The notes: generated by a model not told the origin, from the sequence alone. Shown: positions 9,374-24,643, counted from the first letter of the stretch. The stretch: 64,000 nt of DNA from Phragmitibacter flavus (GCF_005780165.1 NZ_VAUV01000005.1:62001-126000); one strand, 5' to 3'. Made by a program: numbers and translations.

Positions 9374-9887
9374 CGACTTTTTTGACGCGATTGTAAATGC
9401 TCAAAGGCTCAGGCTTGTTCCGGATTGGGAGCACGATCCGGCGGACAGCGCACCAGCGAGGTCTGGAGTTAGCTAAGTGATAGCAAGGTGACAGAAATAT
9501 TTCCCTCATGTATGAAGGCAACGGCCTGGGCGCGGGTGATGAATTGGCGCAGACTGGGGAACCAGTGCGAGGAAAACTTGCTGAGCCGGATCAGGAATTC
9601 ATTTACGCGAAGCCAGGTGATCACCCCAAGAAGTCGTTTCTGTAACTCCCAAAGGTCCCAAATTTAGGGTTGGGATCGGCAAGCATGATGTCGAGTCACT
9701 GCGGATCTGGATGCCCAAGCCGGAAAAAAGACCAAAACCTAAAAGACCGTCGCCCGGTAAAAAATAAGTAGAATCTGTGACAAAAAGCCAGTGGGCAGTC
9801 CATATTTTTCAGCCAATAAAGCGTGTGGTAATTATGTGACATTTCCGTGTGTTGACCATCTCGGTCTGGATGGTGGATAATTTAGGA
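9374..9887. other. Intergenic region with coding-like fragments but no secure gene
   Basis: Over 500 bases between the helicase start and the secreted acidic protein. The reverse strand is open from about 9663 to a stop at 9469-9471 and reads like a real protein piece (for example ITWLRVNEFLIRLSKFSSHW), but it has no ATG; the only start is GTG at 9622-9624. A forward 45-codon frame lies at 9508-9645. A Lys/Pro-rich forward tail ends at 9767 (ESLRIWMPKPEKRPKPKRPS). These look like remnants of genes broken at a mobile-element boundary. TGTGAC sequences occur near 9776 and 9835. Confidence 0.4.
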
Positions 9888-10580
9888 ATGAACCCGCTGA
9901 ATCTATTTGCTTGGATAATATCGCTTGGTGTTCTCTGGATGGGTGCACCTGCTGCCCACTCACAGATGCTGGTTTACAAAGTGCTAATTGACGAAGGTAA
10001 AGGCATCAATTACCACGCTTATGATGGCGGCTATTTTGTGGCACCTGTGCTCGGTGGAAGCGGCTCCTTTTTGCTTACTAGCTCAGACAACCGGCGAATC
10101 TACGTGGAAGCCACCGACAGCGGCCGTCTGTTCACTGCGGTGAATGACAATTCCAAGAAGGCGGTGGTTTCGGCCACCACTGGAACGGGGACGGCTTCCG
10201 GGGCGATGCTGGCGTATGGCGAGGTGAATCATCGGATTCACGTCAGCGGAAGAACTGCGGATTTGCATGTGCGAGTTGCCAAGAACCTTAGTGGCACGGC
10301 GCTGAGTTCCAACGACGAGAGCGAAGTGGAAGCCCCGACCACGAATCGAAGTTTGGGGGTGGCGGGAATTTCGACTTTCAAACTGAATTTGGATGAGAAT
10401 GCAACACGTCGTGCGAACCAGGACGGGCTTTCAATGGCGCAAACAATGGAGCAGCTAAAGCTCGCGCTGGAACGGGAAGGATATAGCAACGCCGATGCAG
10501 GTGAGGACGACGAAGATGGAGGTGGAGATGGCGAAGATGACGACGAAGGCGAAGATGACGATGAAGGTGAAGATAATTGA
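9888..10580 (+). CDS. Secreted protein with a highly acidic Asp/Glu/Gly tail
   Basis: A 230-residue unrecognised protein. The chosen ATG (9888) gives a clean Sec signal peptide, MNPLNLFAWIISLGVLWMG, ending at APAAHS. An upstream start at 9849 would spoil it. The mature part is beta-rich with Gly/Ser/Thr. The last ~30 residues are almost only Asp, Glu and Gly (DDEGEDDDEGED), which could bind divalent cations or be disordered. It ends at 10580 just before gspE and is probably co-transcribed with gspE and gspF. Position makes it either a substrate or an accessory of the type II secretion machine. I do not assign a function. Confidence 0.75.
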   Translation: MNPLNLFAWIISLGVLWMGAPAAHSQMLVYKVLIDEGKGINYHAYDGGYFVAPVLGGSGSFLLTSSDNRRIYVEATDSGRLFTAVNDNSKKAVVSATTGTGTASGAMLAYGEVNHRIHVSGRTADLHVRVAKNLSGTALSSNDESEVEAPTTNRSLGVAGISTFKLNLDENATRRANQDGLSMAQTMEQLKLALEREGYSNADAGEDDEDGGGDGEDDDEGEDDDEGEDN

Positions 10581-10600
10581 GGGTTTCACCATTTATCGCC

Positions 10601-12340
10601 ATGAACGTTCTTTTGCAATCTGCCAGTCATGCAGGTGTGGCCGATATGGAGGCGGTCACCCTGGTGGTGCGCGAGGCGGCGGTTTGTGGGCAGTCCCTGG
10701 TGGACACGGCATTGACGAAGCTGCCCTTGGATGAAGCTGAATTTTTACACGACCTCGCCAGAAGGTTTCAATGGGACTGCCAAAACTCTCTGAAACCGGA
10801 TGTGGGCTCGGCTGCCGAACTTAAGCAGGCTTGCCCGGCGCGTCTGGCGCTAAGGCATCGATTGCTGCCGCTGAAATTGGAGAGCCGCCGCGTCGACCAT
10901 GAGACAGGTCACGAGGAAACCCCGATCCACAAGGTGTTGACGGTGGCCTGTTATGATCCGTTTGATCTGGTGGCGCGTCAGGCCGTTTCCCGCATGGTGC
11001 CGATGCAGGTGCGCTGGTGCCTTGCTCCGCGGAGCGAGATATTGAGAGGCATCCAGGCGTTTTATGGCGTGGGCGCGGATACTTTTGATGATCTCCTCAA
11101 AAATCGTGCCCAAGATGATGACGACAGCCACATGCGGGATGAGGCAAACGTCATTGATGCGGACGATGATGACGCTTCCGTGGTCAAGTTCGTCAACCAG
11201 ATCATCCGAGAGGCATTGGGGCAGCGGGCGACGGACATTCATGTGGAGCCATTGCATGACAATCTGCGGATCCGTTATCGGATTGACGGTGAGCTGCACG
11301 AAGTGCCGGTGCCGGAGAACATCAAAACCTTGCAGGCGTCGTTGTTGGCCCGCATCAAGGTCATGGCAAAGCTGGATATTGCGGAGAAACGTTTGCCGCA
11401 GGATGGCCGCATCAACCTGAAGCTGGACAACCAAAGCATCGACGTGCGTGTGGCATGCATCCCAAGCGTGGAAGGAGAAAGCATCAGCCTGCGCCTGCTG
11501 GGACAGGAACGTTTCACCCTCGACAAGCTGGGGCTGACGCCTGATTACCGGGACAAGATCGACCAATTATTGGCGAAACCGAACGGCATCATCTTGGTGA
11601 CGGGCCCGACCGGTAGTGGAAAAAGCACTACGCTCTACACTTGCCTCTCGCACTTGAACAAAGTAAACCGGCGCATTGTCACCATTGAAGACCCGGTGGA
11701 ACACAAGCTTTCCGGGGTGGTGCAGATTGCGGTCAAGCCGGAGATCAACCTGACCTTTGCCAGCGGGTTACGCAGTATTTTGCGCGGTGATCCTAATGTG
11801 GTGATGGTGGGGGAAATTCGTGACCTTGAAACCGCAGAAATCGCCGTGCGTGCTTCGCTGACAGGACACCTGGTGTTTTCCACTCTGCATACCAACGACG
11901 CGGTGGGCGGCATCACGCGGTTGGTGGAGATGGGGGTGGAACCCTTCCTTGTTAGTTCTTCGGTGCGGGCCTTCGTCGCCCAACGTCTGGTGCGCTCGCT
12001 TTGTCCTCACTGCAAAAAGCCGGTGCAATACAGCACGGATCAACTGAACGCCTGTCAGTTTGGCGAGGCCATTGGCAAGACCATCTATGGGGCGGACGGT
12101 TGCCAAGCCTGCCGGGGAACTGGACATCACGGACGGCTGGCGATTTATGAAATGGTCATCATCAGCCCTACCTTGCAGGACATGATTTCGCGCAGGGCGA
12201 GCGGCAATGAACTATTAAAACAGGCACGCAAGGAAGGGTTGATTTCCATGCGTGAATACGGCTGGCGCAAGGTGCTGGAAGGCGTGACCACGGTTGAGGA
12301 AGTGATGAGGGTCACCAGTGAGGACTTCTTGGATGAATAA
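10601..12340 (+). CDS. gspE: Type II secretion ATPase GspE
   Basis: The cytoplasmic hexameric ATPase that drives pseudopilus assembly. The ATG at 10601 gives 579 residues; a TTG at 10577 overlapping the previous stop is the alternative. Visible motifs are Walker A GPTGSGKSTT (about 335-344), Asp box TIEDPVEHK, Walker B region VMVGEIRDLETAEIA, His box GHLVFSTLHTNDA, and a zinc-binding pair CPHC (about 468) / CQAC (about 502). The N-terminal domain is shorter and more divergent than in proteobacterial GspE. gspF follows 24 bases later. Paralogous PilB ATPases are similar, but the neighbouring gspD, gspG-K, gspL and gspM genes favour type II secretion. Confidence 0.93.
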   Translation: MNVLLQSASHAGVADMEAVTLVVREAAVCGQSLVDTALTKLPLDEAEFLHDLARRFQWDCQNSLKPDVGSAAELKQACPARLALRHRLLPLKLESRRVDHETGHEETPIHKVLTVACYDPFDLVARQAVSRMVPMQVRWCLAPRSEILRGIQAFYGVGADTFDDLLKNRAQDDDDSHMRDEANVIDADDDDASVVKFVNQIIREALGQRATDIHVEPLHDNLRIRYRIDGELHEVPVPENIKTLQASLLARIKVMAKLDIAEKRLPQDGRINLKLDNQSIDVRVACIPSVEGESISLRLLGQERFTLDKLGLTPDYRDKIDQLLAKPNGIILVTGPTGSGKSTTLYTCLSHLNKVNRRIVTIEDPVEHKLSGVVQIAVKPEINLTFASGLRSILRGDPNVVMVGEIRDLETAEIAVRASLTGHLVFSTLHTNDAVGGITRLVEMGVEPFLVSSSVRAFVAQRLVRSLCPHCKKPVQYSTDQLNACQFGEAIGKTIYGADGCQACRGTGHHGRLAIYEMVIISPTLQDMISRRASGNELLKQARKEGLISMREYGWRKVLEGVTTVEEVMRVTSEDFLDE

Positions 12341-12364
12341 ACGCAGAACATCGCGAGATTGATC

Positions 12365-13624
12365 ATGTCTTCCTTTCACTACGAAGCCATTTCTTCCTCT
12401 GGCGAACGCAGCAACGGCGTTTTGGAGGCATCGGACCGTGGAGAGGTGATGCGGTTGTTGGCACGTCGGGGCTTGCAGCCCTTTGCCATTCATGACGCAG
12501 TGGAAATGACGGATCGGAAGACGTCCTCCGATAAGAATAAGGGCAAGAGCGAAAAAGCGGTGCGCACGGCAAAGGCCACTGGTATCAAGCTTAGTCGTGC
12601 ACAGGTGATCCAGTTCACTGAGGAATTGTGCGACTTGTTGGGAGCCGGATTGCAGTTGGAACAGGCGTTGCACGCGATGGAGAATCGAAGCGCGGCTTCG
12701 TCGCGAGACACTGCCTCAAGCTTGCGGGCGAGAGTCAGGGATGGGATGCCCTTTTCCACAGCACTGGCACAGGTTAGCCCGTCCTTTGGCGAATTGTATT
12801 GCAATCTGGTTTCTGCCGGGGAGGCCAGCGGTGCTTTGGCTCCCATCCTGCAACGGCAAGTGCGATATCTGAATCAAATGGAAGCCCTCCGTTCAAAGGT
12901 GACAGGAGCGTTGATCTATCCGGCGTTTATCGTGTTTTCAGGCGTTGCGCTGGCCATTGTGTTCGTGACTTATTTGCTGCCCAAACTGGCGGTGCTGGTG
13001 AAAAACACGCAAGGCAAACTACCGCCCGTCGCGCAGTGGATGCTGGCGGCCAGCGATGTGTTTCGTGGTTGGTGGTGGCTGCTGTTGATGTTGGTCGTGT
13101 TGGCTGCCGTGACCATTCGTGTGCTGCTGCAGGACAAAGCCCGGTTGCTGTGTTGGCATCGCATCAAGTTGACGCTTCCCATTTACGGTCCCGTCTTGCG
13201 CAGTCGATTTGAAGTGCAGTTTCTTGAAACCTTAGGCAACCTGCTGGTCAACGGCCTACCGCTCAACCGTGCATTGGAATTGGTCAAACGTGCCACCATG
13301 AATCTGTTCCTACGTGACCGTTTGAGCGCGGTGGAGGCTATGGTGGGCGATGGCGGCTCATTGAGCCGGGCGCTGGAAAAGACCGAAGTGGCGAGGCCAC
13401 TGGTGGTGGACATGATCAAGGTCGGCGAGCAGACCGGTGAGATGGCGGAAACCCTGCAAAAAGCGGCGACACGGTTTGATAACCAGTTGAGCAAGCTCAT
13501 TGACAGGGCCGCATCATTGATTCAGCCAGTGATCGTGCTGGTGATGGCCGTGGGCGTAGGGATCATGGCCTGGATGATGGTGAGCGTGGTCTACGGAACC
13601 ATGGAAAATCTGCGGCATCGATGA
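12365..13624 (+). CDS. gspF: Type II secretion inner-membrane platform protein GspF
   Basis: A 419-residue polytopic protein that couples the GspE ATPase to the pseudopilus. It starts SSFHYEAISSSGERSNGVLE, the typical GspF/PilC opening. It contains two copies of the T2SSF domain: the first has FTEELCDLLGAGLQLEQAL and FSTALAQVSPSFGELY, the second has QFLETLGNLLVNGLPLNRAL. Three hydrophobic segments lie at about residues 185-210, 235-255 and the C-terminus (VIVLVMAVGVGIMAWMMVSV). Length is normal for the family (about 400). It follows gspE by 24 bases and ends that block; no prepilin peptidase follows. Confidence 0.93.
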   Translation: MSSFHYEAISSSGERSNGVLEASDRGEVMRLLARRGLQPFAIHDAVEMTDRKTSSDKNKGKSEKAVRTAKATGIKLSRAQVIQFTEELCDLLGAGLQLEQALHAMENRSAASSRDTASSLRARVRDGMPFSTALAQVSPSFGELYCNLVSAGEASGALAPILQRQVRYLNQMEALRSKVTGALIYPAFIVFSGVALAIVFVTYLLPKLAVLVKNTQGKLPPVAQWMLAASDVFRGWWWLLLMLVVLAAVTIRVLLQDKARLLCWHRIKLTLPIYGPVLRSRFEVQFLETLGNLLVNGLPLNRALELVKRATMNLFLRDRLSAVEAMVGDGGSLSRALEKTEVARPLVVDMIKVGEQTGEMAETLQKAATRFDNQLSKLIDRAASLIQPVIVLVMAVGVGIMAWMMVSVVYGTMENLRHR

Positions 13625-13748
13625 TGAATTCGAAGCTGGTCGCTAAAATCCAGGGCGAATCAGGAGCTATTCTCGGACGACAAACATCGACTTTGGTAAT
13701 TCAACACAAGAATACTTAGCCGGTGTCGCAAGGCGCTGGAACCAATGT

Positions 13749-14003
13749 TCAGACCGAATTGCAACCGCAGATGTTTGCGCTCTCAAGATCAAGTCCGGTT
13801 CGCTTCAGTCCACACTCGCAAGACTTTGTCGGAGGGGTTAAGTTTCGAGCGGGCGGACGACCGCGAGGTCTAGGTTCGACCAAGCCTTTCTGCGCTTGGG
13901 GTTCAATGTAGCGCTGAACTGTGCGCTGAGAAATGCCAGAATTATCAGCCAGTTCCTTGATGCTCCACCCACTTTGGTGCCCAGCTGGTAAGTGTCTTCG
14001 CAA
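13749..14003 (-). pseudogene. HTH fragment, probably a degraded transposase or regulator
   Basis: The reverse strand encodes an obvious helix-turn-helix (QSGWSIKELADNSGISQRTV) followed by a Pro/Arg hinge (VEPRPRGRPPARNL), like the N-terminal DNA-binding part of IS630-type transposases or small regulators. A Cys-containing tail then ends at a stop. There is no ATG; only TTG (14001-14003) is available. The frame is open upstream to the TAA of the MORN gene, with which it is in the same reading frame. No catalytic transposase domain follows. I read it as a remnant, possibly of an insertion next to the MORN gene. Confidence 0.4.
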
Positions 14004-14045
14004 ATCAGGGTGGTAGAATTTAATGCTGCGATTATCAAGCAGTTG

Positions 14046-15437
14046 TTATTGGCGTTGTTGCTGGATCTTGTCCGCCCGTTTACAGAAGTCGTTGAGAAAA
14101 AGGAGCAACTGTGCAGCCTGACCTTCGGTGGTTCCTATTTCCTTGGCGAGAGTAACCGCTTCTGCCCTAGCCGTCCTTTGGACTAGGTTGTCAACGGAAA
14201 GTGTGCCATCGCACACCGAACAAATGAGATTGCGCACCAGCCTGATTCCCGGATCGGGAACATCCGGCAGGAGGATGCGAAGATTGTTGTCGATGACTCC
14301 CGATCTGATATAGTGCCGCGAAAGGAGAGAAATTGCGGCCCCTGTCAGGGTGTTCTCCGCATCGAAAATGGCATCTACTCCCCATTGGGCGACGACCATA
14401 CCCATAATGTTATAGATTGCCTGTTCCTGACGCTGGCTATGCGAGCGAGTTTCGTCAACGGCTACCTCGTCATATCGGTGCATGTCATCGCTGGAATTCG
14501 AAAACATGGCGGAGGAATTTGCCACAGAGGGTTCGCGCATCTGAGAAACGAGCCTGTCATATTCATAAATGCCGTGGGCATGTCGCTTGCCGGATAATGA
14601 GATCATGTAACCTTCGCCATGCCGCTGTTCATTGCGCCAGTCTCCAATGAAGATAGAACCGTCCGGGTAGAACATTTGGCCGTAGCCATGCTCGTTCCAG
14701 TCCTGCAATTCACCTACATATGCCATTCTCGCGTTCATGTTCGCATAGATGGCGACGACATTGGTATCGAGTTTGCCCTGACTGGCCAAGCCATGGTAAA
14801 TGCCTGCAATGCCATTTTTTCCACTGGACACGGCTATTCCAAAGCCGGCTGCCATACCGTGACGGTCAATCGGGCCATACCAATGGATCTGGACGCTTTG
14901 ATAGAGTTTTTGGACGATGGCACCGGAAGATAAGCTTTGCTGAGAACGTTCAAAAGAGTAGTCGCTTGAGGTGGGTTGGTCGTCATAAAAACCACCCTGA
15001 TAGGCGATGTTTCCGCCTGGTGACCATTGCAATCCAGAACCGTGACGCAGACCATCATGCCAGTTCCCCTCATACCGACTACCGTCGGCAAACCGCATCA
15101 CACCATACCCGTGCTCTGACCAATCCTTTAGCTGACCGACATAGCAGAGACCTGTGAGGGGGTAAATGGCTACTGCATCGCCATCCATCCGTCCGACATT
15201 CATTTCGCCATAGTAAGCGGCTGCGAGACGGTCATTGTGTGTAAAAAGGGCTACGCCACGCCCGGTGGCATAACCATCGGCATCCAAATGACCGCGCCAC
15301 TCCATCTTGCGGGTCTGGCTACGGTACTTGTTCCACACTTTTGCTTGATTATTCTCTGCGCGGCTGAAGCCGCCTGTTTGGGCATGGGCAGAGAGCATCA
15401 AGCCGACGAGTATTAAAGTGGTTAGGAGTCGTTTCAT
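14046..15437 (-). CDS. Secreted MORN-repeat protein
   Basis: A 463-residue protein with a signal peptide (MKRLLTTLILVGLMLSAHA) and at least four MORN-type repeats. The clearest are EHGYGVMRFADGSRYEGNW with HDGLRHGSGL, and EHGYGQMFYPDGSIFIGDW with RNEQRHGEGY. Other degenerate copies lie near GRGVALFTHNDR and GFGIAVSSGKNG. The C-terminal 150 residues are helical and unassigned, with a CSVC pair. MORN repeats form elongated beta-hairpin arrays; the role is usually scaffolding or cell-envelope contact. It is downstream of the SIR2 gene on the same strand (gap about 130 bases), but it is exported while SIR2 is cytoplasmic, so a joint function is doubtful. Confidence 0.8.
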   Translation of the reverse strand: MKRLLTTLILVGLMLSAHAQTGGFSRAENNQAKVWNKYRSQTRKMEWRGHLDADGYATGRGVALFTHNDRLAAAYYGEMNVGRMDGDAVAIYPLTGLCYVGQLKDWSEHGYGVMRFADGSRYEGNWHDGLRHGSGLQWSPGGNIAYQGGFYDDQPTSSDYSFERSQQSLSSGAIVQKLYQSVQIHWYGPIDRHGMAAGFGIAVSSGKNGIAGIYHGLASQGKLDTNVVAIYANMNARMAYVGELQDWNEHGYGQMFYPDGSIFIGDWRNEQRHGEGYMISLSGKRHAHGIYEYDRLVSQMREPSVANSSAMFSNSSDDMHRYDEVAVDETRSHSQRQEQAIYNIMGMVVAQWGVDAIFDAENTLTGAAISLLSRHYIRSGVIDNNLRILLPDVPDPGIRLVRNLICSVCDGTLSVDNLVQRTARAEAVTLAKEIGTTEGQAAQLLLFLNDFCKRADKIQQQRQ

Positions 15438-15570
15438 AGGATTGCTTGATGTATAGTTCTTGCCCGTAAGGTGATTATTTTTGCGTTTGATTGGCAGTGA
15501 CTGTTGTTATTGATCGTGTTGATGGCTAACGCCGTGCATGTGTTGTTCTGGCTGCTGTGGTGGAATTGCA

Positions 15571-18500
15571 TCAAGCTGCGCTAGCCGTCTGTGGCATCGC
15601 CAAAGCATTCAAGCGCAAACGGACATCCTCGACGAATGGCCTTTCGAGAGAGTCGTAGCCTTCCAAGTCATCTAGGGACTCCTCCGCAAGTTCCGACAGT
15701 TCCCGGTCATCGCGCAAATGATGGACATTTAACGATGCGGCTGCCAGGAGATAGTAATGAATCAAACGAGCGTTGCGATATCCTTGGGTTATGGGGAGCA
15801 AGAGGCCTTGCCGGAGTATATAAAGAATATGATCAGCCGGAAGAATGCGTCTGCGATCAGCTAGCCAATAATGGGATGGCAAGAGAGCTTTTTTGCGCGA
15901 GTTGTTGATTTCACAAACCTCGCAGAGCACTTTCATTTTTAGGACATATAGGCGATTCCACCACCAGGAGGAGCGCTCGACATCCTGAAGATTGTTCTCG
16001 GCTGTTTCCAGACATGCCCAAGCCTGATCTAGCAAGCAACAATGCTTCTGGTCGTGAATCGGGCACTTCTGGGTGCTGAGCGCTCCTTGGCCGAATTGGG
16101 AGCGGATTAGGAAGAACTTTGAAACAAACACCTCTGCCTGCCGCAAGGCAACTATGGCCCATTCACTTGGGTCTCCAGCGAAATGCTTTGAATTGTTCAG
16201 GTAAGCGAGTGCCTCATTCAGTTTGCGCGTCGCCTCATTGTCTCTTCCGAGCATACCGAGGCTAAGTCCGTAAATGACCCGTGAGCGCAAATTAGCCCAT
16301 TCAAACGCTTCACAGTTTTGCAGACTCAATTGACGCGACAGCCGGATTGCGACCATGCATTGGGCGCAGATGTGAGCCCAAAGACTCCGAGCTATGGAAT
16401 CTGCTTCGTGCGAGTGAACGTCTTTCGATTCGAGTTTACGCACGCGGGTGCGCGTCAAGAATTCAAAATGTTGCCAGCGATAAGCACGTTCGACGTTAAT
16501 CTGCGCACCGAGAATGATGAGTCGAATCAGGCGGGCTATTGAGTTGCCGGTTCTGTTTTCTTTTGGAGCCGTGGCCCACCAACGATCAATAGTTGAGCGA
16601 ACCAGAAGAGGACTGGGGCGAACTTCCTCACAATTTTTGTGTGCGAGCAATATCTGAAGAGCTTCCTCATCGAAACCCTCCACATAGTTTTTGAAGTCTT
16701 TTGCAAGATTTTTCGCGCGTTGAAGCGGTGCCCCTTGCAAATAGAGGCTGTCGCTGTCTGAGCAGGAAGGGGCACCTTGGAGGTTGGAACGTAACCCTTC
16801 CCAACGCACTTGCATGAAGAAGCCATCCCCTTGAGCAGACTTGATCATGTTGATTATGCGTTGAATCTGGCTTCGCAACATCGTCCAGGGAATATTCTGC
16901 TGCCCTTCGCAGGTATCATTGCTCAGCCCTGTCTCCTGAATTTCCAGCCGCAGCCGTTCAAACAAATCGTCCTCGATTCCCCAAAAGATAATCACATCCT
17001 CGGACAGACGAAGAATCTTACTGAGTTGATTGAATGCAATTTCAGCAAGTAGTTCTTTGTAGCGCGAGGAGGATTTCCCTTCATCGCCGCACAAATCATT
17101 ATCCATTTGGGGTGTTGGCTTGGCTTCTGATATCCAGTGGAGACATTGGACATAATGATAAAGGCATTCAACTAGGGGAACTGGATCGTGTGATGCCTGA
17201 GTTGCCTTGAAATACCATTCAGCAATCCACATATGGGTTCGAGCACGTCTGGCGCGGAGGCTTCTGCGAATCGCACCCTTGTCCTTCAGAATGTCCTGTT
17301 CGTCAGCTTCGTATTGTTCACACCAATGAGCGATACGGATGCGCAAGTCCCAATGGAGCCAGAAGAAGGACGCCGCTTTCATTCTAAAGAGGCCGAAACC
17401 GTGGAGTTCCCTGCTCCATTTCTCAGCCAGCAGAGAGCGTTGTGCATCCCGATCCGTGCCGGACGCCGCATCAAAACGATTGTTGCAGTCCATCACGCCT
17501 TCAGCCCACATGGAGCAAGGATGGCGAGACTGGCGGAAAAGGCAAAGCGCATATAGAAAGCGAACTCGCAGGAGCTTGGTATCGAATTGGTTGCCCGTTG
17601 CTTCGGATACCCAATCCTTGAGTCGCTCGACTATTTTTTCGCTATGAATCAGGCCGGGATATGAATCTGAGTCTTTGATGAGATAGCCGGGTTCACTGGA
17701 GGAGGCATGATGTATTTCACGTAGTAGTTGTTCGTCGCATTGGACTTTATCCTTGATGAGTTCCCATGTCTTTTCCCGGACGGCAAGATCAAGCTGCAAT
17801 TCATCTGCAATGACGTGCGCAGGCTTGGCTTCCTGCTGCTTAGTTGACATGCTAGCCAAATGTCTGGCAACCAAGTCACGCCGATAGCTGGCAAAGGGCA
17901 GGTAAACAATGCTTATTCCGACGGAACAAAGTTCATCAAACAGTATATGAAGCTCGTTGTAGTCTTTGTCGGTCCAATGCTGTAAGCTAAATGCCGCATT
18001 GACTCCGGGAGGCGTGCGTCCTGAAACAAAAATGGTCACCTTTTGATGATCGAGACGCAAGTATCTGCGTAGAATTTTCTGCTGTTTTCTAGTGGCACTT
18101 GCATAGGCAATTGGTTCCATGCGGAATGAACCAAGACGATTGGCCACGCTCTGCCACAACACTCGCTTCAAGTGCTTAACAGTGATAAAATCACCCAATT
18201 CATACCACGCATAACCATCAATCTTATGTGTGTCCCTCCAGAAATATTGGGAACACAAAGAGGACAAGCCTGATCCGCCGTAAATAACGAGCTTGGGGGA
18301 TGCCTTGCCTGGAGCCACATGCTCATGATTCACACAGTGAATCAGATAGTTTCCGTCGTACTCACCGGCATGCAGAAGGGACAGCTTGCCCGCAAGGGAC
18401 TCGTTCAGATTATCAATGAACTGCGCAACGACGTTCACAGACTTCTTTGATTTCGGTTCATCTGTCAGCTTGCTGTTTTCCCTTCCCGATGGAACTAGAG

Positions 18501-19722
18501 GATGTGGAGGAACGAAATGAGCATATTCGTATCGGAGTCCGCCTGGAGGCAGCGTATGAGTGATTTTTTGATACAATTCAAGGAGAAATAGGTCAGGGCG
18601 AGGTTCAATTGCGGAATAAAAAAAGGCGCTGTCTTCCGATTCCAATTCGAGCTTTCTGATGACGCTTTTTTCGCCTTTTTCGCTATGAGCTAGCCAAAAT
18701 ACCTTCAGGGTCATTCCGCTGTCTTGCAGACGCGACTGCTGAATAGCATATTTTAAGAGATGCCGCACTCTGCCATCATTAAGCGAATATCCCATCACAA
18801 TAAGGCAACACTTTGAGCGAACAATGCCACTATCTTCCGGGCCTACCATGTAGGAATAGAATCTTTCGCAATCTTCTTGCGTGGGCCTCTGGTCGACCGA
18901 GTAATCGGCCCTGGTTTCAAACATGCCACCATGTAGTTTCACGATGGTGTCTTGAAGACGGACAATTTTCGCATCGGGAAGGCCTCCACTGATACTGACA
19001 TCGAAAACTTGTAGATGTGATTTATTGGTGGTGAACGCCTGCTCAATCAGTTCGTCGAAATTGGTCGTAAGTACCGTATGAATGCGCAGTGGCATCGCAA
19101 GGTTGGCGAGCATCTGATGGATCAAGCTGGGCCGCCTTCCCTTCGTCACAAAGACGTTATAGGCATCTAAGACCGCCTGATTGGGGGCGCCTAGAGATGG
19201 AGTCTTGTCATTTTTTTCCCTGTATATCCTGCAAATAAAGACAAGTGCCGATTTCCATTCCGAACAAGCGCCCAATGCTTCCGCGACAAGTCTGCTCTTA
19301 TCGGTTTCCCTCCGGTTGCTGGCTTTTTCAGAGGGCGAAGGATTCTTCAACCTACTCATAAAGGAAAGTAAATCAGTTTCCCAACGACGCAGCGATTCAC
19401 CCTGTTCGATGGTCGGATAAGGAGGCCAGCCGTTGGCAACGAAATTCCAATAATCGGACTGTCGTTCAGATCCCTGTTCAGACACTTTGTCGCAAATAAG
19501 AGTTTCAATGGCAGCGTCATCGCTCGGAGAATTGGGGTGAGCGACGGGTATGCCTACACCTCTAAAAACAGCCCACTTGAGATATTCGATGAATTCCTGT
19601 CCTCGGGGGATTCCTGATCTGCTTGAACATCCGCTGCCTAGGAATGGAACAAAGTCATATCCTTCTCTTACAGCCTTAACTAGTTCCGCCATGAATGCTT
19701 CGCGCGGTTCGATCTTTTCCAT
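15571..19722 (-). CDS. Giant SIR2-domain protein, SIR2-STAND-like candidate antiphage sensor
   Basis: A 1383-residue protein (ATG at 19722; a GTG at 19770 would add 16 residues). Residues about 20-330 form a SIR2-like NADase domain: VPFLGSGCSSRSGIPRG (NAD pocket), TTNFDELIE, KLHGG with the putative catalytic His, and VMGYSLND. A STAND-like centre follows at about 475-620, where KLVIYGGSGLSSLCS has the shape and place of a P-loop but lacks the essential Lys, with VTIFVSGRTPPG after it. The last 700 residues are Trp/Leu-rich helices of TPR-like character. The architecture resembles Avs5-type and other SIR2 antiphage proteins, which destroy NAD+ on phage sensing; this is family inference. Base composition is visibly lower in G+C than the gsp genes around it, suggesting acquisition by transfer. 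Confidence 0.82.
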   Translation of the reverse strand: MEKIEPREAFMAELVKAVREGYDFVPFLGSGCSSRSGIPRGQEFIEYLKWAVFRGVGIPVAHPNSPSDDAAIETLICDKVSEQGSERQSDYWNFVANGWPPYPTIEQGESLRRWETDLLSFMSRLKNPSPSEKASNRRETDKSRLVAEALGACSEWKSALVFICRIYREKNDKTPSLGAPNQAVLDAYNVFVTKGRRPSLIHQMLANLAMPLRIHTVLTTNFDELIEQAFTTNKSHLQVFDVSISGGLPDAKIVRLQDTIVKLHGGMFETRADYSVDQRPTQEDCERFYSYMVGPEDSGIVRSKCCLIVMGYSLNDGRVRHLLKYAIQQSRLQDSGMTLKVFWLAHSEKGEKSVIRKLELESEDSAFFYSAIEPRPDLFLLELYQKITHTLPPGGLRYEYAHFVPPHPLVPSGRENSKLTDEPKSKKSVNVVAQFIDNLNESLAGKLSLLHAGEYDGNYLIHCVNHEHVAPGKASPKLVIYGGSGLSSLCSQYFWRDTHKIDGYAWYELGDFITVKHLKRVLWQSVANRLGSFRMEPIAYASATRKQQKILRRYLRLDHQKVTIFVSGRTPPGVNAAFSLQHWTDKDYNELHILFDELCSVGISIVYLPFASYRRDLVARHLASMSTKQQEAKPAHVIADELQLDLAVREKTWELIKDKVQCDEQLLREIHHASSSEPGYLIKDSDSYPGLIHSEKIVERLKDWVSEATGNQFDTKLLRVRFLYALCLFRQSRHPCSMWAEGVMDCNNRFDAASGTDRDAQRSLLAEKWSRELHGFGLFRMKAASFFWLHWDLRIRIAHWCEQYEADEQDILKDKGAIRRSLRARRARTHMWIAEWYFKATQASHDPVPLVECLYHYVQCLHWISEAKPTPQMDNDLCGDEGKSSSRYKELLAEIAFNQLSKILRLSEDVIIFWGIEDDLFERLRLEIQETGLSNDTCEGQQNIPWTMLRSQIQRIINMIKSAQGDGFFMQVRWEGLRSNLQGAPSCSDSDSLYLQGAPLQRAKNLAKDFKNYVEGFDEEALQILLAHKNCEEVRPSPLLVRSTIDRWWATAPKENRTGNSIARLIRLIILGAQINVERAYRWQHFEFLTRTRVRKLESKDVHSHEADSIARSLWAHICAQCMVAIRLSRQLSLQNCEAFEWANLRSRVIYGLSLGMLGRDNEATRKLNEALAYLNNSKHFAGDPSEWAIVALRQAEVFVSKFFLIRSQFGQGALSTQKCPIHDQKHCCLLDQAWACLETAENNLQDVERSSWWWNRLYVLKMKVLCEVCEINNSRKKALLPSHYWLADRRRILPADHILYILRQGLLLPITQGYRNARLIHYYLLAAASLNVHHLRDDRELSELAEESLDDLEGYDSLERPFVEDVRLRLNALAMPQTASAA

Positions 19723-19832
19723 AGATTGGTTGATGATGAGCGTTAGTTGATTGGCTGGTCGGATAAGCACGTTTTGCGGATAAAATTTCGAGCTTAGTCT
19801 TCGTATTTTTGAGTGATTGAGCGATACCTTTG

Positions 19833-19860
19833 TTAATATGTCTACTCATTTATTGATCAA
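19833..19860 (-). promoter_or_regulatory. Candidate sigma-70-type promoter of the SIR2 gene
   Basis: On the reverse strand TTGATC (19855-19860), a 16-base spacer and TATTAA (19833-19838) form a plausible -35/-10 pair about 110 bases before the SIR2 ATG, in an AT-rich stretch unlike the surrounding DNA. It suggests the SIR2 gene is transcribed independently of gspD. Weak, by eye only. Confidence 0.3.
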
Positions 19861-19882
19861 ATCCAGGTTGCTCATGTGTTTC

Positions 19883-19924
19883 AGACATCCTGTCTATGAA
19901 TTGCTTTTGGGAAACAATAGACAG
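19883..19924. repeat. Overlapping inverted repeats between gspD and the SIR2 gene
   Basis: AGACA-TCC-TGTCT (19883-19895) overlaps a second pair, CTGTCTAT (19890-19897) with ATAGACAG (19917-19924). The same pentamer thus occurs three times in alternating orientation, just downstream of the gspD stop and upstream of the SIR2 promoter candidate. This could be a transcription end for gspD, though no U-tract is visible, or an operator for the SIR2 gene. Confidence 0.45.
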
Positions 19925-19947
19925 AATGTGGGGTAGGGGGCCACCAG

Positions 19948-22272
19948 TCAGCGTTTGGTTGTGCTTGGGGTGGATTTCGCTTTTCCAGTGGACTTCTGTT
20001 TTATGCCCGGCTCAACAGCTTGCGCTTTTGAAGCGTCTGAGTCCTCTTTCCATTCCGGAAGGGGGAGAAGGGGAGTTCCGTCGCCGGGATTCGCGAATTC
20101 CTGGGTGCGTTGGTAGCTGCGGCTGTCGCGATTGAGGTCGGTTTGTTCCTGGATGTGGTCCGCTCCGTCGTTGAGGATGCGCGGTTGCACGAAGATCATC
20201 AACTCGCGGCGCTCCTTGGTTTTGTTAGTGCTTCCAAACAGGTGTTTCACGACGGGGATGCGAACCAGAAATGGCAGTCCGCTCTTGGCTTTGCGGTCGC
20301 GCTCGGTGATCAATCCGCCGAGCATCACCGTGGTGCGGTCGGGCACGATGAGCCTGTTACGCATGCCCTGTTCAGAGATGTTGGGAATTTGGTTGCCGCT
20401 GATGGTGGTGAAACCACTGATGTCGTTGTTCTGCTGCTGGAACTCCAGCATCACCTCGTTGTTGTTGTAGATGTGCGGTGTGATGTCCAGTTGCAGACGC
20501 ACGGGGATGTATTGAGTGGTAGAGCGAATGGTGTTGCCGGAATCGAGATTGTTCACGGAACTGAGCGTTTCGCCAGGGATGGCAAGTTGTTGGCCGATAT
20601 AGATGGTGGCGGATTGATGGTTCAGCGTGGTGATGGTCGGCTTTTGCAAGATGTGGAAGCGTTCGGTCTTTTCCAGCGTTTGCAGGAACACGTTCCAATG
20701 CTTGCCGATCTGACCATAAACCGTCAATCCGTCCAGCGCGGGCAGGAAGTCGGCGGCGCCGCCAAGTTGAGAAATGTCGGTGAATGCGGTGCCCTGGGTG
20801 TTGAGCACGCCGCCCAAAAGGCTGTCGTTGCCCACGTTTTCAAGGGTGCGAATCCAGTCGAGGCCAAAGTTAAAATCTTCTCCGACGGTGAACTCGCCGA
20901 TGATGACGGAAAGCAGGATTTGTTTGGGCCGCACGTCCAGTTCGTCAGCGAGTTGTTCCAGCATGCGAAGCTGGTCGGGAGGACCGCTGGCGTAAAAACG
21001 GGAACTGCCGGGATCGACAATCACCAGGGTCTTGGAAACCAGCACGCTATAAGCCTTCTTGGTGACATCGAGTGGCTCCACGCCGCCAAATCCGAAGCCG
21101 CTGGAAGCTGACCCACCGCTTCCGCCCAAGCCCAAGCCGCCGCCGTCGAGCCCAGAGCGGCCTGTGCCACGATTGCCGAAGCCGCCGCTGGTGTTGGAAG
21201 GTTCGACTGGTGTGGTGCTGGTGGTGGTTTGGGGGGTGATCGACTCTCCGGCCTCCTTGCTGTTTCGTTGCAGGGACTTCTCGGCGATGGAAACGAAAGT
21301 CGTGAGGTCAATGTAGTTGAGCTTGCGCGAAATGAACCCGCTGGTGGGAGATTCGCCATCAAGGTAGGCAATCAAACTTTCGATGTATTGAATGTCCAGA
21401 GGGCGGGCGATGATGACCAGACTGTTGGTGCGCTCAACCGGCTGGATGATGGGCTTGATGGCCTTGGTGGACATGCCTGCAAAGGAGGCGACGGTTTGTG
21501 GGGCAGCAGCTTCTTCCGCCGTCGGCTGGCGGCTGGTCGGGCGTTCGCGCTCGGTGGGGGCACGGGTTCCGGAAGCGGAAGCCGTTTCCAATCCCAACAA
21601 AGTGGAAAGCTGTTCGGCGACCACTTCAGCATCGGCGCGGGTCAGATGCACCAGATGGTGTTTCGTTTCACTCGGTGGAAGATCCACCTGAGCCGCCAGT
21701 TCGACATAAGAGCGAATGGTGTTGGAGTTCTCGGTGATGAGCAGTGCCTGGGCATTGGGCACGGCGGTGATCTTTCCATACGAATGAGGCGGAACGACCT
21801 GCGCAAAGGCACGTGCGGCTTCGTCGGCATCCAGGTAACGCAGGGGCAGAAGGTAGTTGACCACCTGGTCGCTCTGCGGGAGGTCGGCCTCGCGCAGGAT
21901 CATCGGCACCCCTTCGCTGGCGGGAAGTTTGTCGCCGGAAATGACGATGACCTTGATCATCTGGTCGCCGCTGGGAACGAGGGCATAGCCAGCCAGCAGC
22001 AGCGATTTTTCGATGAACTCGATGGCCTCGGGGGGGCTGAGCTTTCCGGTGGTTTCGATGTTAACTACGGCGGCTTCCAGAGCAGTATCGCGGATAAGAC
22101 GTTTGCCGGTGAGGCGTTGATAGGTATTGAGCACCTCGCCAATCGGAGTTCCCGGCGGAAACTGCACCGCGATGGACTCCGGCGAGTCCGGTGAGGGTGC
22201 GTTATTTTGCGCATGAACGCCCGCCAGCAGCAGGGATGCGACGACGCACAAATAAAAGGATCGGCAAAACAT
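19948..22272 (-). CDS. gspD: Type II secretion secretin GspD
   Basis: A 774-residue outer-membrane channel protein with a signal peptide (MFCRSFYLCVVASLLLAGVHAQ). N0/N1-like modules follow: VNYLLPLRYLDADEAARAFA, ITAVPNAQALLITENSNTIR and RTNSLVIIARPLDIQYIESL. A Gly-rich insert lies around 370-395. The C-terminal secretin domain has LSVIIGEFTVGEDFNFGLDW, VPDRTTVMLGGLITERDRK and SGLPFLVRIPVVKHLFGS. The C-terminal tail is Lys/Ser-rich. It is the last gene of a reverse block (L-M-C-like-D) that starts near 24596. PilQ-type secretins are related, but the neighbours make GspD the better name. Confidence 0.93.
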   Translation of the reverse strand: MFCRSFYLCVVASLLLAGVHAQNNAPSPDSPESIAVQFPPGTPIGEVLNTYQRLTGKRLIRDTALEAAVVNIETTGKLSPPEAIEFIEKSLLLAGYALVPSGDQMIKVIVISGDKLPASEGVPMILREADLPQSDQVVNYLLPLRYLDADEAARAFAQVVPPHSYGKITAVPNAQALLITENSNTIRSYVELAAQVDLPPSETKHHLVHLTRADAEVVAEQLSTLLGLETASASGTRAPTERERPTSRQPTAEEAAAPQTVASFAGMSTKAIKPIIQPVERTNSLVIIARPLDIQYIESLIAYLDGESPTSGFISRKLNYIDLTTFVSIAEKSLQRNSKEAGESITPQTTTSTTPVEPSNTSGGFGNRGTGRSGLDGGGLGLGGSGGSASSGFGFGGVEPLDVTKKAYSVLVSKTLVIVDPGSSRFYASGPPDQLRMLEQLADELDVRPKQILLSVIIGEFTVGEDFNFGLDWIRTLENVGNDSLLGGVLNTQGTAFTDISQLGGAADFLPALDGLTVYGQIGKHWNVFLQTLEKTERFHILQKPTITTLNHQSATIYIGQQLAIPGETLSSVNNLDSGNTIRSTTQYIPVRLQLDITPHIYNNNEVMLEFQQQNNDISGFTTISGNQIPNISEQGMRNRLIVPDRTTVMLGGLITERDRKAKSGLPFLVRIPVVKHLFGSTNKTKERRELMIFVQPRILNDGADHIQEQTDLNRDSRSYQRTQEFANPGDGTPLLPLPEWKEDSDASKAQAVEPGIKQKSTGKAKSTPSTTKR

Positions 22273-22304
22273 GGGAGGAAACAGGTTTGAAGGTTGCAGA
22301 TGGG

Positions 22305-22844
22305 TTAGCGCGTAGAAGTCGGCGTGGTTTCACGGCGGCGGCGGGAGCGCAATGACTCGTCGTCGCTGCTTGAAGTTCGGGTGCTTGCGGCAATGCTTTT
22401 CGAGGAGCCACCCGAGACTGGCGAGCCGGGGGATGTGGCCAGTTGCTTCAAGAAATTCTCATCGTAGTGGAGCACCGCGCTTTCGCCATTCACTTCGACT
22501 TCAACAAAGGAGTCTTTGCGGGTGTCCTCAAGGCTGGCAGTCTTAATCTTCATGCCGTTGGCGGCGTTCTGACCGCTCACCAGTTCGGTGCGCTCCCGCG
22601 TTTTGGTGTTGACCACCACGGCGACGATTTCCTCACCAAACTGAACCATGCTTCCAAGAACCAGATCCTTGGCGAAGGATTCCTTCTGGACCGCCACTGG
22701 CGCAGTTTTCAGGGTGAAAGGATTTTTTTTCCAGATCTCTTGAAAATGCTTTAGGGGATGGGCATCCGGCGGCGCAAATCCATCCTCGGCCACGGCGAAC
22801 GCCGGACCCAGAACCAGGATGAAAAATAGAATGCTCCGTTGCAT
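22305..22844 (-). CDS. Periplasmic GspC/PilP-like protein
   Basis: A 179-residue exported protein with a signal peptide (MQRSILFFILVLGPAFAVAE). It has the IWKKNPFTLKTAP motif (NPFTLK at 41-46) seen at the start of the homology region of PilP and GspC proteins, then a small beta domain (LGSMVQFGEEIVAVVVNTKT) typical of their HR domain. The C-terminus is a disordered Ser/Arg tail. Unlike classical GspC it has no transmembrane anchor and no PDZ domain, so it may be the minimal link between the GspL/M platform and the GspD secretin. It lies 32 bases upstream of gspD and 11 bases after gspM. Confidence 0.65.
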   Translation of the reverse strand: MQRSILFFILVLGPAFAVAEDGFAPPDAHPLKHFQEIWKKNPFTLKTAPVAVQKESFAKDLVLGSMVQFGEEIVAVVVNTKTRERTELVSGQNAANGMKIKTASLEDTRKDSFVEVEVNGESAVLHYDENFLKQLATSPGSPVSGGSSKSIAASTRTSSSDDESLRSRRRRETTPTSTR

Positions 22845-22855
22845 GGGAATGAGAT

Positions 22856-23389
22856 TTAGGATTTGCCAGCTAAGGCAGCCGCATACCAGCGCCAGAATTC
22901 GATCATCACCACCACCTCGCTGGGCGACTCCTTGTCTGGAACGACCCTGACGGACGGAACCACACGAAATTGCGAGGGGGCCAGCAAGCCGTGCATCCAG
23001 GTCACGACTTTTTCCAAATCGCCCTTAACCGCGAGCGTAACGCCGAACTGCTGATAGTATTCAGTATTGGTGGTCTCTTGAAGCTGTTGTGACTGGACGG
23101 TCAGGCCGAGTTGTTTCGCGTTTTTCACGATGGTATCGAGTTCGGCATTGGCCTCCAGGGCACCTTCATTGGCGACGGGCTGGCTGTTTGTCACCCACTG
23201 GTGCTTTTCGAGCCATTCAGGCGCTTCAGCCAGCATGCTCTCGGTTTCGAACTGCATCAACTCCAGGTCATGCTTGCGACGTTCGATCTGCTCCTGCCAG
23301 TTCATCAGGCGCTGGCTGAGCACCAACGCGACGACCAGGGTGAACAGCATCCCTGCAACCATCAGAAGACGGCGTTCATTGGATTTCAT
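22856..23389 (-). CDS. gspM: GspM/PilO-like inner-membrane assembly protein
   Basis: A 177-residue bitopic protein: short cytoplasmic tail, one membrane helix (LLMVAGMLFTLVVALVL, about 8-25), a coiled coil, then a periplasmic ferredoxin-like domain (TVQSQQLQETTN... VTLAVKGDLEKVVTWMHGLL). This is the GspM/PilO plan. The start is chosen at 23387-23389 because AAGGAGG precedes it by 5 bases. Longer upstream readings overlap gspL and look non-coding. It overlaps the end of gspL by 14 bases, so the two are translationally coupled. GspM and PilO cannot be separated by eye; the gsp context decides. Confidence 0.75.
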   Translation of the reverse strand: MKSNERRLLMVAGMLFTLVVALVLSQRLMNWQEQIERRKHDLELMQFETESMLAEAPEWLEKHQWVTNSQPVANEGALEANAELDTIVKNAKQLGLTVQSQQLQETTNTEYYQQFGVTLAVKGDLEKVVTWMHGLLAPSQFRVVPSVRVVPDKESPSEVVVMIEFWRWYAAALAGKS

Positions 23390-24596
23390 CGGCACCTCCT
23401 TGAGTCGGGATTCCTTCCACGCGGAAATTGGCACGGTTGTCGTCAAGGATGGTCGGCTGGGGGGCGTTGAAGGCAAAACGCTTGAGCGATGCGGCCGTCT
23501 TGAGGTCGGACTGGAACTTGGACGCATGAATCAACGAAGTTGCCTCGCCACTGATCACGACCTTTTCCAAGTCCATGCTGAATTCCTTGAAGCGGATGCC
23601 TTCGGGCGGCAGGAGCGCTACGATCTCGCGGAACACCTCCAGAGGGTAGTTGTCGCGGTTGACTGCTGGCTCCAGCGCCCACCATTGCACCTGCGCCTGT
23701 TGAACCCGTTCCACTTCCGGCTGGCGGGCGTGGATTTGGGTGAATGATCGGTTCAGTTGCTGTTCCTGCCACATCAGCCAGCCAGCCCATGCGGCAAACC
23801 CAAACACCAAGACCCCAAGCAAAGCCAGCAGCGCACGAAGTTGCTGACGTTGCTTGCGCTGTTGAATACGTGCAGTAGCGGCTGAGGCGGGCAGCAGACC
23901 GCAAGGCTTTGCGGGCGATTGCGGAGTAGGTCTTGCCTCGATCAGAACGGGAATGGCCAGAGCCGTCTCCAACGCTTGTTTGAATTCCTCGGAAATCTCC
24001 GTCCAGACATGCAACGTTGTCCATCCATGCAATGGCCAATTGACGGCGAGAATATGGCAGATGTCCCGAATTTCACGAATGGCATCCTCTTGAAGTTCGT
24101 GGGCGCTGATAGCGGACACATGCAGCAACGTTTCGCCCTGGGTGAAGGCAAGCACGAATCTTCCGAGCTCCTTCCACAAGATGATACTGTTGCACGGAAG
24201 TGGAAAAAACGAAACGGAAGGCTCGAAAGCATCGCCATCCTGTGCCCGGACGGGACTCCCAAAATCGATGTCAGCCAGCGCCAGCGTTCCCATCAACACC
24301 CCTTGGTCGCTGGCGGCGACTTGCCATGAGAACCAGTGGCAGCCCGCCGCCGGAGTCTCCACGCCGAGGGCATTCCAACGTAGCGCCACGGTGGCCTCCA
24401 AGGGAGCGTCATCACCGTCAAACGCTAGCGCGGGGAAAGGGCTGCTTACCAGGGATCGCAGGGGCACTGCCTGAATGCCGTGTTTGGCGCGGGCTTCGCC
24501 TTCCTGTCTCTCCCATAATCCGTCACGATCACGTCGCCATTGCTCCCACCTGTCTTCACCGGGCAGATGGAGGATTGTTGAAGGGACGTTGCTCAT
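23376..24596 (-). CDS. gspL: GspL/PilM-PilN-like platform protein
   Basis: A 406-residue protein with a cytoplasmic actin-like N-terminal half (about 1-235), one membrane helix (LRALLALLGVLVFGFAAWAG, about 247-268), and a periplasmic PilN-like domain (DNYPLEVFREIVALLPPEGI then RFKEFSMDLEKVVISGEATS). This is the fusion layout of GspL, which recruits the GspE ATPase to the membrane. ATG at 24594-24596 is preferred; a TTG at 24617 is possible. The actin-like half is divergent and I see no clean nucleotide-binding loop. First of the reverse block gspL-M-C-like-D. Confidence 0.75.
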   Translation of the reverse strand: MSNVPSTILHLPGEDRWEQWRRDRDGLWERQEGEARAKHGIQAVPLRSLVSSPFPALAFDGDDAPLEATVALRWNALGVETPAAGCHWFSWQVAASDQGVLMGTLALADIDFGSPVRAQDGDAFEPSVSFFPLPCNSIILWKELGRFVLAFTQGETLLHVSAISAHELQEDAIREIRDICHILAVNWPLHGWTTLHVWTEISEEFKQALETALAIPVLIEARPTPQSPAKPCGLLPASAATARIQQRKQRQQLRALLALLGVLVFGFAAWAGWLMWQEQQLNRSFTQIHARQPEVERVQQAQVQWWALEPAVNRDNYPLEVFREIVALLPPEGIRFKEFSMDLEKVVISGEATSLIHASKFQSDLKTAASLKRFAFNAPQPTILDDNRANFRVEGIPTQGGADEIQ

Positions 24597-24643
24597 GGGA
24601 ATGACCGCCGCCCTCAAGAACGGACGAGCGCGTTACGGGGTGG

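What the first reader, a model, noticed from the sequence alone, without database searches (positions are those of the whole stretch)
15571..19722. 1383-residue SIR2 protein with a STAND-like centre whose P-loop has lost its Lys
An N-terminal SIR2 NADase domain with a complete-looking motif set is followed by GGSGLSSLCS where a STAND P-loop (GxxGxGK-T/S) belongs, and by about 700 helical residues. SIR2-STAND antiphage proteins (Avs5 type) have an intact P-loop. A degenerate one suggests nucleotide-independent activation, or a distinct sensor class. Lower G+C and insertion into a secretion cluster suggest recent gain.
Basis: partly seen in the sequence, partly recalled or inferred. Interest (0 to 1): 0.72.

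Follow-up and report, generated by a model that had tools for sequence, protein, structure and literature searches.

The report
SIR2 immune-like protein with dead ATPase
This bacterial gene encodes a probable phage alarm protein that would destroy the cell's NAD+ when triggered; its central 'ATP switch' keeps the shape of the plant and animal immune switches but has lost the ATP-gripping loop, in this protein and in every relative found, so it may fire without ATP.

Summary
Window 15571-19722, on the minus strand, encodes one intact 1383-residue protein with a SIR2 domain whose catalytic Asn221 and His264 are present. The predicted centre is a genuine STAND fold: VIA Z 15.5 to MalT, 15.2 to a STAND-TPR protein (6mfv), 12.3 to Apaf-1. 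A winged helix and a TPR superhelix follow. The P-loop loss is not private to this gene. All 23 distinct members inspected, from Verrucomicrobiota, Planctomycetota, Myxococcota, KSB1 and a gammaproteobacterium, lack the Walker A Lys, and none aligned over its length has a canonical Walker A motif anywhere. The usual replacement is GxSGVSS; the Walker B acid is gone too. In two relatives the SIR2 motifs have eroded and another effector is fused instead (nucleotide cyclase; SEFIR/TIR), which fits SIR2 being the effector elsewhere. Best explanation: a single-gene, immune-type SIR2 NADase whose STAND core works as a nucleotide-independent scaffold, switched by a ligand bound to the TPR arm. Nothing was tested at the bench. 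It resembles Avs5, but the Avs5 Walker A Lys is experimentally essential, so it should not be filed as Avs5. Inactive STANDs (iSTAND) have been described, so I rate it a new variant of a known kind.

The parts
15571..19722 (-). complete gene, 1383 aa: SIR2 - degenerate STAND - winged helix - TPR
   Evidence: ORF and translation, single copy with no internal stop; family-wide alignment
18568..19689 (-). SIR2 (SIR2_2) effector domain, about residues 12-385; catalytic Asn221 and His264 conserved
   Evidence: Pfam SIR2_2 E 3.3e-11; weak alignment to SIR2-APAZ 8jkz and ThsA 6lhx; motif table
17803..18447 (-). STAND-type nucleotide-binding-fold domain (pseudo-NTPase), about residues 426-640
   Evidence: AlphaFold2 model, pTM 0.76, alternating strands and helices; MalT Z 15.5, 6mfv Z 15.2, Apaf-1 Z 12.3 over the central model
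18253..18294 (-). degenerate P-loop, residues 477-490 (KLVIYG-GSG-LSSLC): strand, short loop, helix; no Lys
   Evidence: sequence; for the members inspected; model strand 93-98 and helix from 102 of the fragment
17995..18039 (-). Walker-B-equivalent strand and loop, residues 562-576 (VTIFVSGRTPPGVNA); acidic residue lost, the family has a conserved YGRNxPGG loop
   Evidence: alignment; conservation 0.57 against the 0.38 mean
17317..17643 (-). helical/winged-helix part of the STAND module, about residues 694-802 (LFRQSRHP ... SFFWLHWDLR)
   Evidence: model helices 310-418 with a short beta hairpin; conserved blocks
15574..17280 (-). C-terminal TPR-like superhelix (putative sensor arm), residues 815-1383
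   Evidence: all-helical model, pTM 0.77; LGN TPR Z 16.6, MalT domain III Z 14.7, Rap Z 14.6

Best explanation
A single-gene, immune-type NAD+-degrading alarm protein built like a bacterial NLR: an N-terminal SIR2 NADase effector, a central STAND scaffold, a winged helix and a C-terminal TPR superhelix. The STAND core no longer binds nucleotide in the canonical way, because the Walker A Gly-Lys and the Walker B acid are both gone throughout the family. It therefore probably serves as a structural relay and assembly surface rather than an ATP/ADP switch. Proposed sequence: an invader-derived ligand docks on the TPR arm; the arm moves off the STAND/winged-helix body; the protein self-associates (dimer, ring or filament); SIR2 is aligned and destroys NAD+; the infected cell stops growing. 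Shown here: the domain order, the catalytic residues, the predicted STAND fold, the family-wide loss of the motif, the effector swaps, and the insertion. Inferred: ligand sensing, ATP independence, assembly, NADase activity, antiphage function.
For: SIR2 Asn221 is retained in 19 of 19 aligned members and His264 in 17 of 19. SIR2 motifs are among the best conserved stretches (0.61-0.67 against a mean of 0.38), while the P-loop proper is only 0.46. The fold is STAND: MalT 8bob Foldseek E 9.6e-5, VIA Z 15.5 over 287 residues at 3.6 A. The C-terminus is a TPR superhelix resembling MalT domain III among others. No Walker A motif anywhere in 19 aligned family proteins, and no Lys in the degenerate loop of four further partial members. 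In the two members with eroded SIR2 motifs a substitute effector is fused: Guanylate_cyc E 2.1e-5 (L125) and SEFIR E 2e-16 (L162). No conserved partner gene across 21 loci. Neighbours at some loci are defence-like: PDC-M49A homologue E 1.7e-36 beside L160, LmuB-like and SIR2 genes beside L126, LRR-Roc-COR-TIR beside L012. Patchy occurrence: full-length in about 10 of 387 genomes of the order, with a tree that mixes phyla. Foreign composition, and the gene is absent from the gspD-gspF junction in two genomes of the same family.
Against: No functional data. The fold models rest on only 18-20 homologues (mean pLDDT about 72). Loss of Walker A does not prove that no nucleotide is bound. Sequence profiles do not connect the centre to any STAND family: no Pfam hit and no match to nSTAND3. 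Eroded SIR2 in L162 and L125 is inferred from motifs only; L162 has Asn at the His position, a change tolerated in Avs5 (PMC12931631). The window gene's own neighbours are not defence genes.
Confidence: 0.6

Rival explanations
1. The pseudo-NTPase is itself the sensor, a nucleic-acid receptor, as proposed for inactive STAND domains (iSTAND) by Kaur et al. The TPR arm would only scaffold.
For: The published proposal that inactive STANDs retain nucleic-acid binding (PMC8195603). Orc/Cdc6 structures are also among the matches (Z about 9). The Walker-B-side loop YGRNxPGG stays conserved (0.57), as if it had a new ligand.
Against: The best fold matches are MalT, the STAND-TPR protein 6mfv and Apaf-1, whose ligands bind elsewhere by general knowledge. 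A long TPR arm is the more usual sensor. No basic patch was analysed.
Confidence: 0.13
2. It works in a hetero-oligomer with an ATP-competent STAND protein that supplies the switch, as plant RRS1 (P-loop not needed) works with RPS4.
For: Plant precedent (PMC4246468). The same genome holds an nSTAND3 protein with Walker A GPPGTGKT about 46 kb away, outside the window.
Against: No partner gene is conserved beside the family in 21 loci. Each member carries its own effector, unlike a pure sensor. The nSTAND3 protein is of a different type.
Confidence: 0.12
3. The core still binds a nucleotide (or NAD+/ADP-ribose) through a non-canonical pocket, so the switch is kept by other means.
For: The fold and the loop after the Walker-B-like strand are well conserved, including an invariant Gly573 and a near-invariant Trp583.
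Against: Phosphate-loop Gly and Lys and the Walker B acid are lost together; the predicted loop between strand and helix is only about 3-4 residues, too short for a normal P-loop.
Confidence: 0.1
4. Not an immune protein: a SIR2 enzyme that signals or regulates in normal physiology.
For: Host neighbours are type II secretion genes, not defence genes; no activity data.
Against: Patchy distribution, foreign composition, effector swaps and defence-like neighbours in relatives.
Confidence: 0.05

Closest known systems
Avs5 (AVAST type 5, SIR2-STAND)
   Same: N-terminal SIR2 NADase, central STAND module, C-terminal repeats; single gene
   Different: Avs5 carries an nSTAND3 domain and a Walker A (GPAGSGKT in PaAvs5-1) whose Gly362 or Lys363 to Ala change abolishes immunity (PMC12931631). 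Here Walker A and B are lost in every member and no nSTAND3 match was found.
iSTAND / iSTAND2 (Kaur et al. 2020, 2021)
   Same: STAND domain with eroded NTP-binding motifs in a predicted bacterial conflict protein with an N-terminal effector-type domain
   Different: iSTAND proteins are third components of MoxR-vWA ternary systems (PMC7159879; PMC8195603). No conserved MoxR or vWA partner exists here, and the effector is a fused SIR2, a combination not reported in the passages read.
MalT and the STAND-TPR protein 6mfv
   Same: Closest overall folds of the centre; same order of NTP-binding fold, winged helix and TPR superhelix
   Different: By general knowledge these are nucleotide-dependent; MalT is a transcription factor and has no SIR2 domain.
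Plant NLRs that do not need the P-loop (RRS1, ADR1-L2)
   Same: Evidence that a STAND receptor can act without its P-loop (PMC4246468, PMC10442035)
   Different: Eukaryotic, and single examples or experimental mutants rather than a whole family with the motif lost
SIR2 of long/short pAgo systems, ThsA
   Same: Best sequence matches of the SIR2 domain (PADLOC Aga_SIR2 E 4.9e-14, ThsA)
   Different: Match is confined to SIR2; no Argonaute, APAZ or SLOG/macro part here

Membership tests
SIR2 (SIR2_2) domain | Sequence match above the curated cut-off | tested here: met
   PF13289 43.9 bits, cut-off 24.5
SIR2 (SIR2_2) domain | Catalytic Asn in TTNxD and His in HG | tested here: met
   Asn221 and His264, aligned and against 8jkz
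SIR2 NADase | Hydrolyses NAD+ | not testable with these tools
   needs a biochemical assay
STAND superfamily | STAND fold with winged helix | tested here: met
   Model m9a4dc35db00d; MalT Z 15.5 rmsd 3.6 A 287 aligned, 6mfv Z 15.2, Apaf-1 Z 12.3
STAND superfamily | Walker A GxxxxGK[ST] and Walker B acid | tested here: not met
   absent in this protein and in the core relatives examined
Avs5 | SIR2 followed by STAND and C-terminal repeats | tested here: met
Avs5 | Intact Walker A, essential in PaAvs5-1 | tested here: not met
Avs5 | nSTAND3 (PF20720) match | tested here: not met
   no hit up to E 0.1; profile comparison to four nSTAND3 proteins gave probability 0.3%, though that profile is small
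iSTAND / iSTAND2 | STAND fold with eroded NTP motifs | tested here: met
iSTAND / iSTAND2 | Part of a MoxR-vWA ternary system | tested here: not met
   no shared neighbour family across 21 loci; window neighbours are T2SS and MORN genes
iSTAND / iSTAND2 | Direct homology of the STAND core to iSTAND or iSTAND2 | not tested
   no iSTAND alignment was at hand; no named iSTAND model appeared in the Pfam hits

The most novel reading that the evidence does not exclude
An undescribed bacterial NLR-like family in which loss of ATP binding is ancestral and fixed, so that immune activation runs purely on ligand-driven rearrangement, with the effector slot exchanged (SIR2, nucleotide cyclase, SEFIR/TIR) around the same ATP-less core.
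Probability: 0.4. Interest if true: 0.8.

Novelty: new variant of a known kind. Interest (0 to 1): 0.6.

Why it matters
ATP binding is generally treated as the core of the NLR/STAND switch, and in Avs5 removing the Walker A Lys kills immunity. A whole family that kept the fold, winged helix, TPR arm and an active-looking NADase while dropping the ATP site is a natural experiment: it would show what the STAND body does apart from nucleotide exchange, and whether immune receptors of this kind can fire without it. The effector-swapped relatives make the family modular and testable in laboratory hosts.

Tried and rejected
Degeneration of this one gene: rejected, since relatives down to 22% identity share the loss. 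Sequencing error at the P-loop: rejected for the same reason. Canonical Walker A elsewhere in the protein: none. Pfam or PADLOC assignment of the centre to a STAND or NB-ARC family: no hits. HMM profile of the centre against PDB sequences: only a chance hit, E 4.7; only structure comparison showed the fold. Profile comparison to nSTAND3: nothing. Avs5 structures did not appear in the fold list; by the tool's own note that excludes nothing. Single-sequence scan of genome contigs, and plasmid and phage tblastn: no relatives; viral contigs gave only SIR2 matches. G220 locus: a different SIR2 protein with an unrelated C-terminus, set aside. L028 and L031 have broken frames and were used only in part; L032 is remote and was not counted; L163 is remote and is counted only in the 19-row alignment, not in the conservation scores. 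Literature search found no description of this family, but only open-licence papers are held. One paper on Avs5 filaments (PMC11897194) is not held; its finding is cited second-hand.

Full report
What is there. Window 15571-19722 carries a complete gene on the minus strand: ATG at 19722, stop at 15571, 1383 aa. The whole genome (5.9 Mb, 44 contigs) has a single copy with no internal stop. The genome is probably a member of Verrucomicrobiaceae, inferred from a kin contig named so whose frame length matches a genome of the same family.

SIR2 domain. Pfam finds only SIR2_2 (PF13289, 3.3e-11). PADLOC matches are limited to the SIR2 part, best to Argonaute-associated SIR2 proteins, with ThsA weaker. 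In an alignment of 19 members the sirtuin motifs GxGxS, TTNxD, HG and GYSxxD are clear; Asn221 is present in all 19 and His264 in 17. These motifs are among the best conserved blocks (0.61-0.67 against a mean of 0.38).

The family. A single-sequence scan found nothing in genome contigs, and neither plasmids nor phages hold a relative. Genome searches and an alignment-based scan brought in relatives from Verrucomicrobiota, Planctomycetota, Myxococcota, KSB1 and a Thalassolituus (gammaproteobacterium), at 22-29% identity for the core members and about 1300-1800 aa where complete. Within the order, about 10 of 387 sampled genomes have a long match. The tree has long branches and open forks, but mixes phyla.

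The lost P-loop. The segment is a strand, a short loop and a helix followed by WxExED: KLVIYGGSGLSSLCSQYF...WYELGDF here; GHLVIVRGEGGVSSVAADAF in L022; RLLVTYGGRGLSSVV in L162; HIYTIDGINGVSSVSSILF in L126; KILVVDGPSGVLAAM in L024. None of the 23 distinct members inspected (19; L025, L028 and L031; L137) has the Lys, and no GxxxxGK[ST] occurs anywhere in the 19 proteins aligned over their length. The most economical reading, an inference, is that GxGGhGKTT became GxSGhSS by losing the Gly-Lys pair; in the model only about 3-4 residues join strand and helix. The Walker-B strand also lacks its acid: VTIFVSGR here, FLYGRNGPGG in many relatives. Conservation is 0.46 for the P-loop proper, 0.57 for the Walker-B-side loop, 0.57-0.62 for the WxExED block and the winged helix. 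A remote relative, L163, has SGGGSSST at the P-loop and ALDSLDEF at a Walker-B-like place; it may be an outgroup or convergent.

The fold. AlphaFold2 on residues 385-905 with 20 homologues gave pLDDT 72.5 and pTM 0.76, with alternating strands and helices, then a winged helix and helical repeats. Foldseek's best match is MalT (8bob, E 9.6e-5), then Apaf-1. VIA-align 2 gives MalT Z 15.5 (287 residues, 3.6 A), the STAND-TPR protein 6mfv Z 15.2, Apaf-1 12.3 and NRC1 NB-ARC 11.3, clearly above the Orc/Cdc6 level of about 9. Residues 780-1383 model as an all-helical superhelix matching TPR proteins (LGN Z 16.6, MalT domain III 14.7, Rap 14.6).

Effector swaps. Two relatives have eroded SIR2 motifs and a second effector. 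L125 (TTNFD to SVNTD, KLHG to KIYG) has an N-terminal cyclase-like domain (Guanylate_cyc 2.1e-5). L162 (TTNAD, RLNH) has a C-terminal SEFIR domain (2e-16). Each lies in a genome that also has a SIR2-intact member (L022, L159). This pattern is what is expected if SIR2 is the effector in the others. Caution: PaAvs5-1 itself works with Asn in place of the HG His (PMC12931631), so L162 may not be dead.

Context. The gene has GC3 51% against 63-71% for most surrounding genes; the adjacent MORN-repeat gene has 56% and the small ORF at 9849 has 55%. In G011 and G001, of the same family, gspD and gspF lie about 250 bp apart with neither gene between. In the window the cluster is also rearranged, with gspE-gspF on the plus strand and gspD on the minus strand. 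No neighbour is shared beside the family gene across 21 loci apart from three weak or unrelated pairwise matches, so it looks like a one-gene system. Some relatives sit beside defence-like genes.

Mechanism. Avs5 shows the reference case: ligand sensing by the C-terminal repeats, a needed Walker A, and SIR2 NADase output (PMC12931631), with filament assembly also reported for Avs5 and ThsA (PMC12700824). Here the input and output parts are present but the ATP site is not. The best-supported mechanism is ligand-driven rearrangement of an ATP-less STAND body that assembles and activates SIR2. Sensing by the pseudo-NTPase itself, pairing with an ATP-competent partner, and a non-canonical pocket remain open.

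Comparison and novelty. It works like Avs5 by layout, but a defining feature (Walker A) was tested and not met, and nSTAND3 was not detected. It shares motif loss with iSTAND, but no conserved MoxR or vWA partner was found. Inactive STANDs and P-loop-independent plant NLRs are known. A SIR2-effector family with fixed loss was not found described in the held literature. Hence: new variant of a known kind.

Noticed in passing
L125:1591-7233: Relative with an N-terminal nucleotide-cyclase domain fused to an eroded SIR2 and the same P-loop-less STAND core; its genome also holds the SIR2-intact paralogue L022.
   Followed up: partly
L162:5552-12610: 2353-aa relative with an eroded SIR2 and a C-terminal SEFIR/TIR domain (E 2e-16); its genome also holds the SIR2-intact member L159.
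   Followed up: partly
L192:4029-8129 (G000:C5 about 128028-132128, outside the window): Same genome, about 46 kb away: an nSTAND3 protein with intact Walker A GPPGTGKT and HEAT repeats; N-terminus weakly LmuA-like. A possible canonical STAND defence protein.
   Followed up: partly
14046-15437 (-): MORN-repeat protein with lowered GC3 (56%) beside the gene; only a partial match in one other genome of the family, so it may have come in together with the SIR2 gene.
   Followed up: partly
4244-9373 (-): 1709-aa methylase-helicase protein with weak matches to DISARM DrmD, BREX BrxH and mad2 models; host-like composition. Could be a defence or mobile-element protein.
   Followed up: no
10577-24617: Type II secretion cluster is rearranged: gspE and gspF on the plus strand, gspD and gspM on the minus strand, while gspM-gspD-gspF are collinear in G011 and G001.
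   Followed up: partly
L012:6386-10093: LRR-Roc-COR-TIR protein directly upstream of one relative.
   Followed up: no
L160:407-2548: PHP-AAA protein matching candidate defence family PDC-M49A (E 1.7e-36) beside another relative.
   Followed up: no
L163:357-4955: Remote SIR2 relative whose P-loop reads SGGGSSST and which keeps a Walker-B-like ALDSLDEF; perhaps a separate route to the same loss.
   Followed up: no
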